This document shows positions 15,057-21,637 of a stretch of 34,349 nucleotides of DNA, piece by piece. The stretch lies in the NCBI GenBank assembly GCA_031275395.1, contig JAISOU010000055.1, forward strand, positions 1 to 34,349, in the 5' to 3' direction. The stretch comes from Helicobacteraceae bacterium. Its GTDB lineage: Bacteria; Campylobacterota; Campylobacteria; Campylobacterales; SZUA-545. Position 1 is the stretch's first letter. Every line of letters begins with the position of its first letter. The position numbers were made by a program, and so were the translations under genes. Below the pieces are notes generated by a model. That model was not told where the DNA came from and made no database searches. It saw nothing but the letters and a program-made list of their open reading frames with translations.

Positions 15057-15440
15057 ATGGACAAAACGGCATTTGAATTGGGAACCATTTATATTAATGG
15101 GCACGAACTCAATAAAACGGAAAATATTGGGTGGCAAAAACATCCGAAATTTGACGGGGTCTTTACAAAAGGTCTGTTTTCTGGTAAAGACAGCAATGAC
15201 AATTTAAGCGCGATGCTGGTCAAAATTGAGCCAAATTGCGAAATTGGAAACCATATCCATGAGGGGAAGGCGGAATTGCACGAAGTAATTCATGGGGAAG
15301 GCGTTACATTGGTAAATGATAAAAGCATCGTCTACAAACAGGGAACTATATCCTTGATACCGGCTGATATTCCACATAGCGTAAAAGCCAATAACAGCGG
15401 CCTCGTTTTGTTGGCTAAATTTACGCCGCCTTTAAATTAG
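15057..15440 (+). CDS. single-domain cupin protein
   Basis: Small cupin barrel, 127 residues, probably cytosolic. Cupin motif 1 is complete: H66-x-H68, E73 and G80 (GNHIHEGKAELHEVIHGEG); motif 2 has PADIPHSVKANN with H107. These three His and one Glu normally hold one divalent metal. No fused domain is present, so substrate or ligand cannot be told. The start ATG follows AAGGAG by 7 bases. The AraC-type regulator begins 1 base after its stop, so they are one operon and the cupin may supply or consume the signal the regulator senses. Low-GC codon use sets it apart from the neighbours and points to horizontal acquisition. Confidence 0.85.
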   Translation: MDKTAFELGTIYINGHELNKTENIGWQKHPKFDGVFTKGLFSGKDSNDNLSAMLVKIEPNCEIGNHIHEGKAELHEVIHGEGVTLVNDKSIVYKQGTISLIPADIPHSVKANNSGLVLLAKFTPPLN

Positions 15441-15441
15441 A

Positions 15442-16128
15442 ATGGTTTATCAGGCGATAATAAAACCAGAGTACGAATTTTTAGAAATTAGAAATTCGTC
15501 CCATAATTTTCCTATTCATTTTCATAAAAGATTATGTATAGGAAAAGTTATCTCCGGATCACAATATATAGAAATAAATAATCGTGAAAATAAAATATCA
15601 AAAAATGAGGTATATATTATTCCGCCATATATTACCCATTCGTGTAAAACCAATGGGAATAGGGATTATTTGGTATTTTCATTGAACCCAAGCGAAATAA
15701 AAAATTGGGAAATATTATCTGAAGGGGCAAAATATCTCGATTTGGATTTAACTAAAATAAAAAAATTAATAGATGGTATTATTTGCAGTAATGATTTGGA
15801 AAAGAATAATATTGTCAATTATTTATTAAATTATTGCGAAGAAAATCAAAATAACAATATAAAACTAAACGACGTTGCCAATAAACTTGGATACAATAAA
15901 TATTATATTTTACATTTATTTAAAGAAAAAATGGGCATTAGTTTGCATCAGTATATTATACAATTAAAAATAAAACGGGCAAAACAAAATAAAAACAATA
16001 ATTTATTGGACATTGCGCTGGAAAACGGTTTTTTTGATCAAAGCCATTTTATAAGGCATTTTAAAAGATATGAAGGAATAACGCCAAAAGAATATTATAG
16101 ATCAAAAACAACGGAGTACTGCACATAA
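15442..16128 (+). CDS. AraC/XylS-family transcriptional regulator
   Basis: 228 residues. The N-terminal half is a cupin-like sensor (FPIHFHKRLCIGKVISGSQY, then NEVYIIPPYITHSCK, residues about 20-70). The C-terminal 100 residues are the double helix-turn-helix: KLNDVANKLGYNKYYILHLF for the first helices and LDIALENGFFDQSHFIRHF with KRYEGITPKEYY for the conserved second half. This is the standard AraC ligand-sensing architecture; the effector is unknown. ATG begins 1 base after the cupin stop. The coding sequence is very AT-rich and lacks the GATCGC words common elsewhere, a strong sign of foreign origin. Confidence 0.9.
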   Translation: MVYQAIIKPEYEFLEIRNSSHNFPIHFHKRLCIGKVISGSQYIEINNRENKISKNEVYIIPPYITHSCKTNGNRDYLVFSLNPSEIKNWEILSEGAKYLDLDLTKIKKLIDGIICSNDLEKNNIVNYLLNYCEENQNNNIKLNDVANKLGYNKYYILHLFKEKMGISLHQYIIQLKIKRAKQNKNNNLLDIALENGFFDQSHFIRHFKRYEGITPKEYYRSKTTEYCT

Positions 16129-16408: not shown

Positions 16409-19003
16409 TTATAAACGCGGATCGACGGGTTCGCTCTCTAAAGCCAAAACGCCAAATACGCATTCATGAACGCGATAAAGCGGATCTTTTTTAGCAAACC
16501 GCTCGAGCGATTCCATACCGAGCGCAAACTCTCTTAACGCCAAATCGCGTTTTTTGTTAAGCGAACGTTTTTTAAGCCGAGCGAGATTATTTTTAAGCGC
16601 GTATTCCGGCCCGTAAATAATTCGTAAATACTCCCTGCCTCTACATTTTATCGCGGGTTGTAAAAGTCTATTATTGTCGGTAGCGATAAAATCGTAAGGT
16701 TTAACCACCATTCCTTCGCCGCCACTTTGGGTTAGTTTTTCCCACCATTTTACGCCGATCGCGATAGAGTTTTCGTCGGTAGTATCTACGATTTTATATG
16801 GGGTTTCTATAAATATCTGGTCAAACCCCGTTATGTGTTTTCTAATTATCTCCATATGGGCGATATGGCTTTCATTATTCCAAACTTTGCCTTCCGTAGC
16901 GAGGATATGAAACGGGGCTATTTTATAGTCGTCGATCGATTTAATTTCCCAACAATAACCGCGATAAGATTGCGTATATAACGTAAGCGCTTCGTAACGC
17001 GATTTATAATCGCTTAAAAGCGCGTTTATATCGGCGCTTTGGCTCGATTCTCCGCGTTTAGCTGCGCGCTGCGCTATTTGCGCGCTATTGAAAAGTTTTG
17101 CCGCTTTTTCTATTTGCGCGTTTGCCGCTTCTAGCGCCGATCGTCCCGCTTGCCCTACGGAAGCGTATTGTTGGCTAATAAGCGTTTGCGCTTTGGCCGA
17201 CCAAGGAGTCAGTTCGGTATCTAAACAGATCCAATCGGTTTGAAAATCCTCCCAAAAACTAGAGTCCGTCAATACTTTATTAAGACGCTCTAAGATAGCT
17301 AATTCAGTTTGCGGATCGCTAAAAAAATCTCTGCCCGTTCTTGTATAAATTACGCCTATTTTTCCGTCCGAAACGTTGAATCTTTTTGCGGCGCTTAGTT
17401 CATTTTTGCATAAAACTATGATCGCTCTTGAACCCATATGCTTTTGTTCGCAAACAACCGCGCCAACCCCTCTTTTGCTATAGTATTCAAAAGCCTCGAT
17501 CGGATATTCTAAATACTCTTCATTGCGGCTAGTTTCGCAAGGCGACATAGTCGGCGGCAGATATATTAACCAATGCGGATCAATTGCGAAACGGCTCATA
17601 ATCTCAAGCGCGGCGATCGCGTTTTCTTCGTTAATTTTTATATTTGGGTTTAAGCGCGTAGATAGATAACGCCTATTTAATACGTCATCGATATTTAGCG
17701 TGTCGTCGTCGATAAAACTTTTTGATATTAAAGGTTTAACGCTTTTGTAATACTCTTTTGCGGCGGCTATCTCTACGATTTCGCGTTCGGGATAGCGAAA
17801 AGCGCTAAGTTTTCCGCCAAAAACGCAACCCGTGTCTATGCAGATCGTATTATTGACGTTTTGAACGTCAAGATTTGGAGTATGTCCATAAACGACTAGC
17901 GCCTTACCTCTATAGTCGTTTGCCCACGACAATCGAATCGGTAAACCGTATTCGTCTATTTCGCCGCTAGTTTCTCCATAAAGACAGAACGTCTTAACCG
18001 TTTCGGAGCCTCTGCCTTGCATTTTTTCTTTGATTCCCGCGTGGGCGACTACAAGATTTCCGTTATCAAAAACGTAATGGCTAATTAACGAACCAAGAAA
18101 ACTCTTAACGTCGTCGCAAAACTCGGCGCTCTCTTTTTCTAACTCTGCGATCGTTAATTCAAGCCCGTGCGCGACGACGACTTTTGCGCCTTTCATATAT
18201 CTTAAAAGTTTATAATCGTGATTGCCTAGTATGCAATATGCGCTATTATTTTTTACCATATTCATAACCAGTCGAAGCGTCTTAACGTTTTGCGTTCCTC
18301 TATCGCATAGGTCGCCAAGAAATATCGCTTTTCGTCCAATCGGAGCGACTACGGAAAAATCTTGCTCGTCGATCGAATATCCCAACTTTTCTAATAGAGC
18401 GCAAAGCTCGTTAAAACAACCGTGAATATCGCCAATAATATCAAAAGCTCCGCGTTCGTCTTTTTTATTATTCCATAAAGGCTTTCGTGCGATTTCAACA
18501 GAGTTTGCCTCTTCCTCGCTATCGATTATATAAACATATCTAAAACCCTCTTTTTCAAGTCGTTTAATAGAGCGTCTAAGTTGATCGTATTGTTTTCTTA
18601 TCACATAATCGCCAAAGTTTCTATCCGATCGCTTTTCGTTTCTCTCTATGCAAAGTTTTTCAGGCGTATTAAGGACGATTGCGATCGCGTGGCAGTTTTG
18701 CGCTCTAGCGATATGTACGATCTTTTCTCGCGCCTCTTTTTGCACGCTTGTAGCGTCTATTACGGTTAATTTTCCTAAGTCCAATCTTTTATTCGCCAGA
18801 TAATAGAGCGCGTCGAAAGCCTCGCTGGAAACGGCTTGATTATTTTCGTCGTCCGAAACTAAAGCGCGAAAGTAATCCGAAGAAAGAATCTCCGTAGGCT
18901 TAAAATGTTTTTTGGCGAAAGTCGATTTGCCGCTACCAGAAACTCCTATCAAAGCGATTAAAGCTAATTCTGGTATTTCAAGCGCTTTATTTAATTGGCT
19001 CAT
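16409..19003 (-). CDS. pnkp: bacterial polynucleotide kinase-phosphatase-ligase Pnkp
   Basis: RNA-repair enzyme with three catalytic modules, 864 residues, close to the 870 of the Clostridium thermocellum enzyme. Kinase (about 1-175): P-loop GVSGSGKST at 20-28, to phosphorylate 5'-OH ends. Metallophosphatase (about 185-420): GDIHG (D192, H194), GDLCDRG (D231, R235), GNHD (N261, H262), H321, YGHTP (H374) and D390, to remove 2',3'-cyclic or 3' phosphates. Nucleotidyltransferase/ligase (about 480-864): motif I lysine K521 in EQKHMGSR, LDTELTPWSAKA, EGMVVKP (763-769) and KCRGREYLRIIYGPEY from K787, ending VFGVLALESEPVDPRL. All modules look intact. The start ATG overlaps the hen1 stop (ATGA, 19000-19003). 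In the known system the ligase module needs Hen1 to seal RNA. Confidence 0.95.
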   Translation of the reverse strand: MSQLNKALEIPELALIALIGVSGSGKSTFAKKHFKPTEILSSDYFRALVSDDENNQAVSSEAFDALYYLANKRLDLGKLTVIDATSVQKEAREKIVHIARAQNCHAIAIVLNTPEKLCIERNEKRSDRNFGDYVIRKQYDQLRRSIKRLEKEGFRYVYIIDSEEEANSVEIARKPLWNNKKDERGAFDIIGDIHGCFNELCALLEKLGYSIDEQDFSVVAPIGRKAIFLGDLCDRGTQNVKTLRLVMNMVKNNSAYCILGNHDYKLLRYMKGAKVVVAHGLELTIAELEKESAEFCDDVKSFLGSLISHYVFDNGNLVVAHAGIKEKMQGRGSETVKTFCLYGETSGEIDEYGLPIRLSWANDYRGKALVVYGHTPNLDVQNVNNTICIDTGCVFGGKLSAFRYPEREIVEIAAAKEYYKSVKPLISKSFIDDDTLNIDDVLNRRYLSTRLNPNIKINEENAIAALEIMSRFAIDPHWLIYLPPTMSPCETSRNEEYLEYPIEAFEYYSKRGVGAVVCEQKHMGSRAIIVLCKNELSAAKRFNVSDGKIGVIYTRTGRDFFSDPQTELAILERLNKVLTDSSFWEDFQTDWICLDTELTPWSAKAQTLISQQYASVGQAGRSALEAANAQIEKAAKLFNSAQIAQRAAKRGESSQSADINALLSDYKSRYEALTLYTQSYRGYCWEIKSIDDYKIAPFHILATEGKVWNNESHIAHMEIIRKHITGFDQIFIETPYKIVDTTDENSIAIGVKWWEKLTQSGGEGMVVKPYDFIATDNNRLLQPAIKCRGREYLRIIYGPEYALKNNLARLKKRSLNKKRDLALREFALGMESLERFAKKDPLYRVHECVFGVLALESEPVDPRL

Positions 19004-20400
19004 AATCGGCTCTCTTCCTTATATTTTCTACGATCTCGTTCTAAAGTTTGCTCGGAAAAAAGCGCGGCCTGCGTGGGCGATCCAAGTTTTTCGTCCGATT
19101 CGCCAATGTCGAAAAATTGAACGGAATAACTATGCTTTTGCGCAACCCTATTCGCCCAATCTCTAAACTCGCCTCTTGCCCATTCAAAGCGGTGATCGCT
19201 ATGGCGTAATCCGCCTTTTAGATTTTCATACTTCTCATTGTATTCGCCGTTGGGAGTAGTAACGATCGCATATCTAGGGCGCGCAAACTCGAACAATACG
19301 CGCTCGAAGGCGTTCAAGCGCGATAGATCTAAATGCTCTATTACCTCTACTACGCATGCCGCGTCGTAACCTTCAAAACGCCTGTCTTTATATGTTAGCG
19401 ATCCTTGAAAGATTAAAAGTTTTTCTTTGGCGCTATCGCATAAACGATCGTATTTAATCTTTTCTTTCGCTCTTTCTAATATCGGATACGATACGTCGAT
19501 CGCCCCTATTTTTTCTATAGAAGGCTCTTTTATCAATAGCGAAAGCAGATTTCCTTCGCCGCAGCCAAGATCGATAACGCTTTTTGCGCCGCATTTTTTT
19601 ACTATATCGATCACGCGTTCTAAACGCTGGCGATTAAGACTTAATTTCTCTTTATTTATCTCCTCTTGTTCTACCGTTTCGTCGTCGGCTTCTCTTAATC
19701 TATTAAGCGCGAGATTGGCAAGCGATCGGCTTTTGGCTAAATAACACTTTGTTATAAACTCGCGTTCTGGGTGATCCTTTAGCCACTCCTCGCCTTGTCT
19801 TAATAGTTTATCCACCTCGTCTTCGCCTATCCAGTAGTGTTTTTTTCTATCAAAAACGGGGATTAAAACATAGATATGACGAAGCAAATCTGAAAGCCGA
19901 ACTTTACCTTCGATCGTAAGATTTATATAAGCGCTTTCACCCCATTCGCTAAAGCGCTCGTCCGTAACGAAACGCTCAAATGAAACCCTGTATCCTAGCG
20001 GCTCAAATACCCTATTTAACATAGAAATATCGCTTTTGCACGGAAGCGTAACTATCGTCGCCGATAAATCTAATTTTGCGTCGGCAAGATCTTGAAACTC
20101 ATCGCTGCGTCCCGACATAGCAGAACCAAAAATACGCGCGATCGCCACGCTAGTAAAAGAGGACGAAACATAAGGGCGATCGCAGACGTAATCAAAAAGC
20201 CCCGATCCGTTTCTTGCAAGATCGACGGGATCGATATCTAATAGTAGCGCGATCGTCGTTTTTTGCGCCGAAACTTCGGGATAAAATACATACGCTTTGC
20301 CGTAATTTAGCTCGAAAACCTGCGGGCGCGACGGATTTTTACGAAATAAATAACCAATATTTTGCGCGTTTTCGCCTGCGTATGAGATCGTTAGTATCAT
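19000..20400 (-). CDS. hen1: 3'-terminal RNA ribose 2'-O-methyltransferase Hen1
   Basis: 466 residues, matching bacterial Hen1 (about 465). The N-terminal half (1-240) is the Pnkp-binding and ligase-activating part, starting MILTISYAGENAQNIGYLFR with KNPSRPQVFEL. The C-terminal half is a SAM methyltransferase: VIDLGCGEGNLLSLL at 275-289, then the metal-binding set E352, E355, H356 (VEVIEHLDL) and H403 (HSDHRFEW), the same spacing as the Mn-binding residues of C. thermocellum Hen1. In the known system it 2'-O-methylates the 3' end at a break before Pnkp seals it, so the repaired site resists a second cut by the ribotoxin. A TATAAT lies 25 bases upstream with a short leader. Confidence 0.95.
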   Translation of the reverse strand: MILTISYAGENAQNIGYLFRKNPSRPQVFELNYGKAYVFYPEVSAQKTTIALLLDIDPVDLARNGSGLFDYVCDRPYVSSSFTSVAIARIFGSAMSGRSDEFQDLADAKLDLSATIVTLPCKSDISMLNRVFEPLGYRVSFERFVTDERFSEWGESAYINLTIEGKVRLSDLLRHIYVLIPVFDRKKHYWIGEDEVDKLLRQGEEWLKDHPEREFITKCYLAKSRSLANLALNRLREADDETVEQEEINKEKLSLNRQRLERVIDIVKKCGAKSVIDLGCGEGNLLSLLIKEPSIEKIGAIDVSYPILERAKEKIKYDRLCDSAKEKLLIFQGSLTYKDRRFEGYDAACVVEVIEHLDLSRLNAFERVLFEFARPRYAIVTTPNGEYNEKYENLKGGLRHSDHRFEWARGEFRDWANRVAQKHSYSVQFFDIGESDEKLGSPTQAALFSEQTLERDRRKYKEESRL

Positions 20401-20430: not shown

Positions 20431-20518
20431 GTATTCAAAATCTTAAAGCGCAAAAAAGGTAAAATGCGCCGTTGCGTCGGCTTTGTCGTTTAGGCGCAAA
20501 AGCTTTGTTTAGGAGCGC

Positions 20519-21588
20519 GTGGCGCGTAGATTTCGTCGCAAACAAACGGTTTTTATTGCGTTAATTATAACGATCTTAGCCGTATTTTTTACGATCGGAG
20601 GTTGTATGTCCCCGCCCAATTTTGACGAAGAGGCGTGGTATAAGACGACTAAATCTTACGATACCTCTTTGCTATACGCCGATCACGTCGACGAAGACGG
20701 CAAGTTTTTTAATCCTTGGCTTAGAATGCCTTCGCTCTCTTCGCTTATACTGCCGCGCATATTCTCAAAACGCGGCGGTTTTCCAGAGTTTTCGCTGGAA
20801 GAGTTTGAGTATATAAAAAACGACTACGGCTATCTTGGCGAGGATAATAACTCTATCTCGTTTCTCGGGCACGCCTCGTTTATTATTAAACTAGACGGCG
20901 CGACAATTTTTACCGATCCTCTGCTATCCGATCGGGCGGGGCTTGCGTCCAAAAAAGTTAAAATCCCGTTTAACTTTGATAACGTCCCGTTAAAACCGAT
21001 TGTTCTTATTAGCCACAACCACTATGATCACCTCGATTATCAATCGGTAGTCGAGTTAATAAAAAAAGATGCGATATTTATCGTCGGGCTTAAAGTGGGC
21101 GATTACATCAGTGGTTTGGGCGCAAAAGAGGTTTACGAACTTGACTGGTGGAATAACGTAACAATCGATAGCGTTAAATATACCTTTTTACCCGCTCAAC
21201 ACTGGTCGCTAAGATTTGGACAGGGCGCCGATAAGACGTTATGGGGCGGCTTTCTGATCGAGGGAAGCAAAAACGTGTATTTTTCGGGCGATAGCGGATA
21301 TTTTAGAGGTTTTGAAGAGTTTGGCAAGCGTTACGCGATCGATTACGCGCCATTGGCGTGGGGGCTTACGAACCGCGCTGGTTTATGCACTATCAACATC
21401 TTAACGTAGAGGAGTTTTTTCGCGCCGCAAAAGAGATTAACGCAAAGGTAGCGATTCCTATGCATTTAGGCGTTATACAGCTTGGCGACGAACACTATCT
21501 ATACCCGCTTTATGAAATATCCAAAAGAGTTTCAAGCGAAGATAATATAACGATATTAAGAGTCGGCGAACGCCTAATAGTAGAGTAA
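20519..21588 (+). pseudogene. NAPE-PLD-like MBL-fold metallohydrolase lipoprotein, frameshifted
   Basis: Two reading frames make one protein. Frame 1 starts GTG at 20519 (AGGAG 3 bases before) with basic residues, a hydrophobic stretch and lipobox IGGC (Cys29), then the metallo-beta-lactamase core: SFLGHASFIIKLDG, FTDPLLSDR, SHNHYDHLD (H166, H168, D170, H171), H228 and FSGDSGY (D258). At about 21350 it leaves frame. The next frame resumes VGAYEPRWFMHYQHLNVEEF and IPMHLG, supplying the last metal-ligand His, to 21588. One missing base between 21349 and 21352 explains the break (intact proteins read roughly YAxIGVGAYEPRW). Relatives hydrolyse phosphodiesters such as N-acyl-phosphatidylethanolamine. 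It could be a true mutation or a sequencing/assembly error. Confidence 0.85.
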
Positions 21589-21637
21589 GGCGCGATTTTA
21601 ATTCGCCGATAATTTGTAATAAAGGCTTTTCTTAGCG

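What the first reader, a model, noticed from the sequence alone, without database searches (positions are those of the whole stretch)
16409..20400. Complete Hen1-Pnkp RNA-repair cassette in a Campylobacterota genome
Seen: a 466-residue protein with the Hen1 metal set (E352, E355, H356, H403) and SAM loop overlaps by ATGA an 864-residue kinase-phosphatase-ligase with all active-site motifs intact. Known: Hen1-Pnkp (studied in Clostridium thermocellum and Anabaena) repairs RNAs cut by ribotoxins and adds a 2'-O-methyl at the break, so the site cannot be cut again. Inferred: this organism faces ribotoxins (colicin-E5-like, PrrC-like or rival effectors). I do not recall this cassette as a usual part of Campylobacter or Helicobacter genomes, so it may be a horizontally acquired immunity module in this phylum. 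It uses the local codon style and contains GCGATCGC words, so acquisition, if any, is not recent.
Basis: partly seen in the sequence, partly recalled or inferred. Interest (0 to 1): 0.85.

Follow-up and report, generated by a model that had tools for sequence, protein, structure and literature searches.

The report
Hen1-Pnkp RNA repair pair, horizontally acquired
A termite-gut relative of Helicobacter carries an intact two-gene kit known from other bacteria for mending cut RNA and chemically protecting the mended spot; the kit is almost absent from its phylum and was apparently passed over from unrelated Betaproteobacteria in the same kind of gut.

Summary
Window 19000-20400(-) is a full bacterial Hen1 (TIGR04074, 623 bits, cut-off 340). 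Window 16409-19003(-) is a full Pnkp kinase-phosphatase-ligase (TIGR04075, 1327 bits, cut-off 750). They overlap by ATGA, and every catalytic residue I checked is intact. It is an ordinary, complete member of the known Hen1-Pnkp repair cassette.

What is worth keeping is its distribution. Only 1 of 397 sampled genomes of the phylum has Hen1 above cut-off. In the family it occurs in 4 of 15 genomes, all in one genus. Its nearest relatives outside the genus are in Rhodocyclales MAGs (Accumulibacter, Zoogloeaceae) from termite guts. In a concatenated tree the Campylobacterota copies form one clade (99/98) nested inside the Rhodocyclales copies; keeping Rhodocyclales together is rejected (p-AU 0.0003). 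Branching inside the genus matches the species tree, and dN/dS is 0.12-0.18. So the best reading is one old transfer, vertical descent under purifying selection, and at least one loss.

That the cell faces ribotoxins is plausible but not shown: no toxin gene is linked to the cassette. New member of a known kind, with an unusual cross-phylum history.

The parts
19000..20400 (-). Hen1, 3'-terminal RNA ribose 2'-O-methyltransferase, 466 aa: N-terminal ligase-activating domain (aa 1-235) and C-terminal methyltransferase domain (aa ~247-449; SAM loop D277-LGCGEGN; metal residues E352, E355, H356, H403)
   Evidence: TIGR04074 623 bits, PF12623 E=3e-93; aligns end to end with solved domains 4dqz (N) and 3jwi/3jwh (C); residues located and invariant in the full-length homologues
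16409..19003 (-). Pnkp, 5'-OH polynucleotide kinase / 2',3' phosphatase / adenylyltransferase-ligase, 864 aa
   Evidence: TIGR04075 1327 bits over 858 aa; PF13671, PF00149, PF16542; aligns with solved C. thermocellum domains 4gp6 (kinase), 4j6o (phosphatase), 4drf/3ty8 (ligase)
18476..18982 (-). Pnkp kinase domain, aa 8-176; P-loop GVSGSGKS at aa 20-27, D43, R121, R125
17740..18478 (-). Pnkp metallophosphatase domain, aa 176-421; GDIHG (191), GDLCDR (230), GNHD (260), GHTP (373)
16412..17698 (-). Pnkp ligase domain, aa 436-864; nucleophile K521 in EQKHMGSR, E597, EGMVVK (763), KCRGR (786)
19000..19003 (-). ATGA stop/start overlap of hen1 and pnkp (translational coupling likely)
   Evidence: sequence TTATGAGCC on the - strand

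Best explanation
This is a complete, selected-for bacterial Hen1-Pnkp RNA repair operon. By analogy with the reconstituted systems, RNA (typically tRNA) cut by a metal-independent ribonuclease leaves a 2',3'-cyclic phosphate and a 5'-OH. Pnkp's phosphatase heals the 3' end and its kinase the 5' end. Hen1 methylates the 2'-OH of the healed 3' terminus, and the Hen1 N-domain switches on Pnkp's ligase, so the break is sealed with a 2'-O-methyl that blocks recutting. Shown here: gene identity, intact active sites, operon overlap, purifying selection, phyletic rarity and tree position. Inferred: the biochemistry (from the family), and that ribotoxin attack is what maintains it. The cassette entered an ancestor of this termite-gut Helicobacteraceae genus once, from Rhodocyclales (Betaproteobacteria) or an unsampled close source. 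It then descended vertically and was lost in at least one member.
For: Equivalog models far over cut-off. End-to-end alignment with solved Hen1 and Pnkp domains. Catalytic residues invariant across the full-length homologues. 1 of 397 phylum genomes over cut-off; all other matches are at most 34 bits and fall in the generic methyltransferase part. Family census 4 of 15, all in one genus. Nearest outside relatives are Rhodocyclales MAGs at 67-71%; sample codes Kf353, Gsp477, Nm470 are termites (PMC11707648). Concatenated tree: Campylobacterota clade 99/98 inside Rhodocyclales 100/99, Rhodocyclales monophyly rejected p-AU 0.0003 (Pnkp alone 0.019). One Rhodocyclales contig confirmed by its own tyrS, 69-77% in most of the 26 genomes of that family searched. 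Genus species tree (G000,G398),(G400,(G394,G399)) is congruent with the cassette tree. Cassette identity between lineages (62-69%) resembles core proteins (68-69%). dN/dS 0.12-0.18, like core genes 0.09-0.22. Cassettes carry the genus's GCGATCGC word (1-4 each), Rhodocyclales ones none.
Against: No biochemistry. No RNA substrate or toxin identified. The tree samples mainly Pseudomonadota and plasmid-borne copies, so an unsampled donor (for example another termite-gut phylum) is possible. The genomes are MAGs, so absences in G348, G394 and G397 (98, 96 and 90% complete) could in part be missing contigs. Cassette locations differ between genus members, so no clean empty site was found.
Confidence: 0.88

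Rival explanations
1. Vertical inheritance: the cassette is ancestral in Campylobacterota and lost almost everywhere.
For: Inside the genus the cassette tree follows the species tree.
Against: 1 of 397 phylum genomes; none in the six other genera of the family; copies nest inside Rhodocyclales with monophyly of the latter rejected; 67-71% identity across phyla equals the divergence within the genus.
Confidence: 0.04
2. Binning or assembly artefact: a Rhodocyclales contig was put in this MAG, or the reverse.
For: All genomes concerned are MAGs, many from termite guts shared with Rhodocyclales.
Against: The cassette sits mid-contig beside native genes, with a right flank collinear at 92-93% in an independent MAG (G398); cassettes carry GCGATCGC words absent from Rhodocyclales; a Rhodocyclales contig carries a native tyrS.
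Confidence: 0.03
3. The cassette serves routine RNA maintenance (repair of stress- or self-inflicted RNA breaks) rather than immunity to foreign ribotoxins.
For: No linked toxin; RtcB, the other common RNA ligase, is absent from all seven genus genomes, so this may be the only RNA-sealing enzyme of that type there.
Against: Patchy presence and loss in congeners argue against a housekeeping role; the 2'-O-methyl step makes most sense against repeated cutting at one site.
Confidence: 0.25
4. Separate acquisitions by the G000/G398 and G399/G400 lineages from related Rhodocyclales donors.
For: Different genomic locations in the two lineages; absence in G394, the sister of G399.
Against: Campylobacterota copies are one clade at 99/98, with internal order and divergence like core genes.
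Confidence: 0.1

Closest known systems
[quoted passage not shown] TIGR04074/TIGR04075)
   Same: Same two proteins, domain order, active-site residues and operon adjacency
   Different: Host phylum and Rhodocyclales-derived sublineage; no extra gene such as the nucleotidyltransferase pair seen beside some plasmid copies
Pnkp1-Rnl-Hen1 complex of Capnocytophaga gingivalis (PMC4411300)
   Same: Same repair logic with methylation
   Different: There Pnkp1 and Rnl are separate proteins and hen1 is unlinked; sequence similarity is marginal here (27-34 bits)
Phage T4 Pnkp + Rnl1
   Same: End healing and sealing of cut tRNA
   Different: No Hen1 and no methylation; separate polypeptides

Membership tests
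Bacterial Hen1-Pnkp RNA repair cassette | Hen1 with N-terminal Pnkp-ligase-activating domain | tested here: met
   PF12623 over its full length, E=3e-93; 4dqz aligned over aa 1-223
Bacterial Hen1-Pnkp RNA repair cassette | Hen1 methyltransferase with SAM loop and E-E-H-H metal set | tested here: met
Bacterial Hen1-Pnkp RNA repair cassette | Pnkp with kinase, metallophosphatase and ligase domains in one chain, all catalytic motifs | tested here: met
   TIGR04075 1327 bits
Bacterial Hen1-Pnkp RNA repair cassette | hen1 and pnkp in one operon | tested here: met
   ATGA overlap
Bacterial Hen1-Pnkp RNA repair cassette | Heterotetramer; Hen1-dependent ligation; 2'-O-methylated repair product | not testable with these tools
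   needs purified proteins
Pnkp1-Rnl-Hen1 (Capnocytophaga type) | Separate Pnkp1 and Rnl genes, unlinked hen1 | tested here: not met
   single 864-aa Pnkp, adjacent to hen1
RtcB-type RNA repair | RtcB ligase | tested here: not met
   No PF01139 match in the seven genus genomes

The most novel reading that the evidence does not exclude
Termite-gut bacteria of different phyla share a common ribotoxin threat, and this repair-and-immunise cassette circulates among them. In this genus it is traded off against PrrC/RloC-type anticodon nucleases, whose phage-aborting cut it might undo: the only AAA_13 (RloC-like) nuclease found among the seven genus genomes is in G394, which lies among carriers in the species tree but lacks the cassette.
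Probability: 0.12. Interest if true: 0.6.

Novelty: new member of a known kind. Interest (0 to 1): 0.38.

Why it matters
It places the Hen1-Pnkp RNA repair system in a phylum where it is otherwise nearly absent, with a traceable cross-phylum transfer among termite-gut symbionts. That marks the termite gut as a place where RNA-cutting toxins may shape bacterial competition, and gives sister species with and without the cassette for testing what it protects against.

Tried and rejected
Looked for an empty insertion site: flanks are rearranged between genus members, so none is clean. Looked for a linked toxin or conserved third gene: none shared among the window, G398, G399 and the Rhodocyclales loci. 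PADLOC: no hit to Pnkp and only a weak methyltransferase hit (mad2, 25 bits) for Hen1. Phages: no full-length Hen1 in 50,697 records; viral contigs gave no Pnkp match with exact 8-mer patterns. Plasmids: 17 records carry a near-full-length Hen1 at 33-51%, so the cassette is mobile elsewhere, but none is close to this one. Low GC as a donor signature: rejected, since the Rhodocyclales copies are GC-richer (0.50-0.59) than the window's (0.427).

Full report
Observation. Hen1, 19000-20400(-), matches TIGR04074 with 623 bits (cut-off 340) and PF12623 over its whole length; Pnkp, 16409-19003(-), matches TIGR04075 with 1327 bits (cut-off 750) and has kinase, metallophosphatase and ligase domains. 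They overlap by ATGA. Each domain aligns with solved C. thermocellum structures: Hen1 4dqz and 3jwi, Pnkp 4gp6, 4j6o and 4drf. The named residues (Hen1 D277, G279, E352, E355, H356, H403; Pnkp K26, S27 (T in one homologue), D43, R121, R125, D192, H194, D231, D234, N261, H262, H374, K521, E597, E763, K768, K786) are present and conserved in the full-length homologues; the exceptions are fragmentary rows. Which of these are catalytic is taken from knowledge of the family.

Function. PMC4411300 summarises the system: Pnkp and Hen1 form a heterotetramer, heal and seal ribotoxin-cut RNA, and Hen1 adds a 2'-O-methyl so the RNA resists the same toxin; Hen1's N-domain switches the ligase on; about 250 bacterial species were known in 2015, with both genes always in one operon. 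Everything testable here fits that description. Catalysis itself is inferred. dN/dS between the window's species and G398 is 0.12 (Pnkp) and 0.18 (Hen1 N part), in the range of core genes compared the same way (0.09-0.22), so the genes are under purifying selection.

Host. The window is a whole contig (C49) of a 2.08-Mb, 99.8% complete MAG. Its nearest relatives are 'Helicobacteraceae bacterium' MAGs Kf353_bin5 (= G398, by matching contigs) and Nm470_bin29 (= G400). Sample codes Kf353, Gsp477 and Nm470 denote Kalotermes flavicollis, Glyptotermes and Neotermes meruensis (PMC11707648). That the window's own species is from a termite gut is inferred from this.

Distribution. In 397 Campylobacterota genomes from 68 genera only the window's own exceeds the Hen1 cut-off; all other matches are at most 34 bits and lie in the generic methyltransferase region. 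Pnkp is over cut-off in 4 of 7 genus genomes. Hen1_L is in 4 of 15 family genomes, all in the same genus. In the Rhodocyclales family of G410, 5 of 250 genomes match, two of them only as roughly 45-residue remnants; in Pseudomonadota it is 7 of 399.

Origin. The closest relatives outside the genus are in Rhodocyclales MAGs: Accumulibacter 71%, Zoogloeaceae 68% and 67% (Hen1), against 40-51% for the other homologues outside Rhodocyclales. In the concatenated tree the four Campylobacterota copies form a clade (99/98), sister to three termite-gut Rhodocyclales copies (100/99), with another Rhodocyclales copy (G589) outside both; forcing Rhodocyclales together is rejected (p-AU 0.0003; Pnkp alone p-AU 0.019; Hen1 alone shows the same nesting with weaker support). 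The Gsp477 contig is truly Rhodocyclales: its tyrS matches at 69-77% in most of the 26 genomes of that family searched. Within the genus, the species tree from four core proteins gives (G000,G398) and (G400,(G394,G399)) with G348 outside. The cassette tree agrees with it, and cassette identity between these lineages (62-69%) is close to that of core proteins (68-69%). The simplest account is one acquisition after the split from G348, vertical descent, and loss in G394 (96% complete). G397 could not be placed.

Age. Campylobacterota cassettes contain the genus's GCGATCGC word (1-4 copies each) while Rhodocyclales cassettes have none. The window's cassette is AT-richer than its genome and than the putative donor copies, so base composition gives no donor signature. 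Both points fit an old transfer.

Context. The right flank (metallo-hydrolase, PGA_cap, hspR, dnaJ-like, purH) is collinear with G398; the left flank differs between the two. Nothing beside the cassette is conserved between the G000/G398, G399 and Rhodocyclales loci, so there is no linked cognate toxin. RtcB is missing from all seven genus genomes. One AAA_13 protein (PADLOC PDC-S06 889 bits, PrrC 47 bits; CxxC motif as in RloC, my reading) beside a type II restriction-modification pair is found only in G394, which lacks the cassette. One case in seven proves nothing, but it suggests a testable incompatibility.

Verdict. A real, complete and typical Hen1-Pnkp cassette; new for this corner of Campylobacterota as far as the survey goes; horizontally acquired most likely from Rhodocyclales; immunity to ribotoxins likely but not demonstrated.

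Noticed in passing
window 15057-16128 (+): Cupin and AraC-type regulator genes; the AraC gene is 26% GC, the lowest of the sampled genes in this 48.6% GC genome: likely a recent foreign insertion just downstream of pnkp.
   Followed up: partly
window 20472-21603 (+): Metallo-beta-lactamase-fold hydrolase gene broken by single-base deletions relative to its intact 375-aa orthologue in G398 (L094:734-1861): pseudogene or sequencing error.
   Followed up: partly
G000 sampled stretches: GCGATCGC (the cyanobacterial HIP1 palindrome) occurs 6.8 times per 10 kb, about 50-fold above a zero-order estimate (my arithmetic), but as expected from its own subwords; GATC itself is enriched.
   Followed up: partly
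L102:8425-10214 and L103:5862-7567: Two adjacent nucleotidyltransferase-domain genes sit after pnkp (Asticcacaulis) or between hen1 and pnkp (Deinococcus gobiensis) on plasmids: possible extra components of some cassettes.
   Followed up: no
L130:1417-3663 (G394): RloC/PrrC-like AAA_13 protein with a CxxC motif next to a type II restriction-modification pair, in a genus member that lacks Hen1-Pnkp.
   Followed up: partly
L095:5996-6163; L099 and L100 (G658, G464): Short Hen1 N-terminal remnants (45-56 aa) in Rhodocyclales genomes: decayed cassettes, pointing to repeated gain and loss.
   Followed up: no
L047:3995-5764 and L078:523-2297: DNA adenine-methyltransferase-like gene plus a 261-aa partner inserted next to purH in G398 but at another place in G000 (68-69% identity): a mobile restriction-modification-like pair.
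   Followed up: partly
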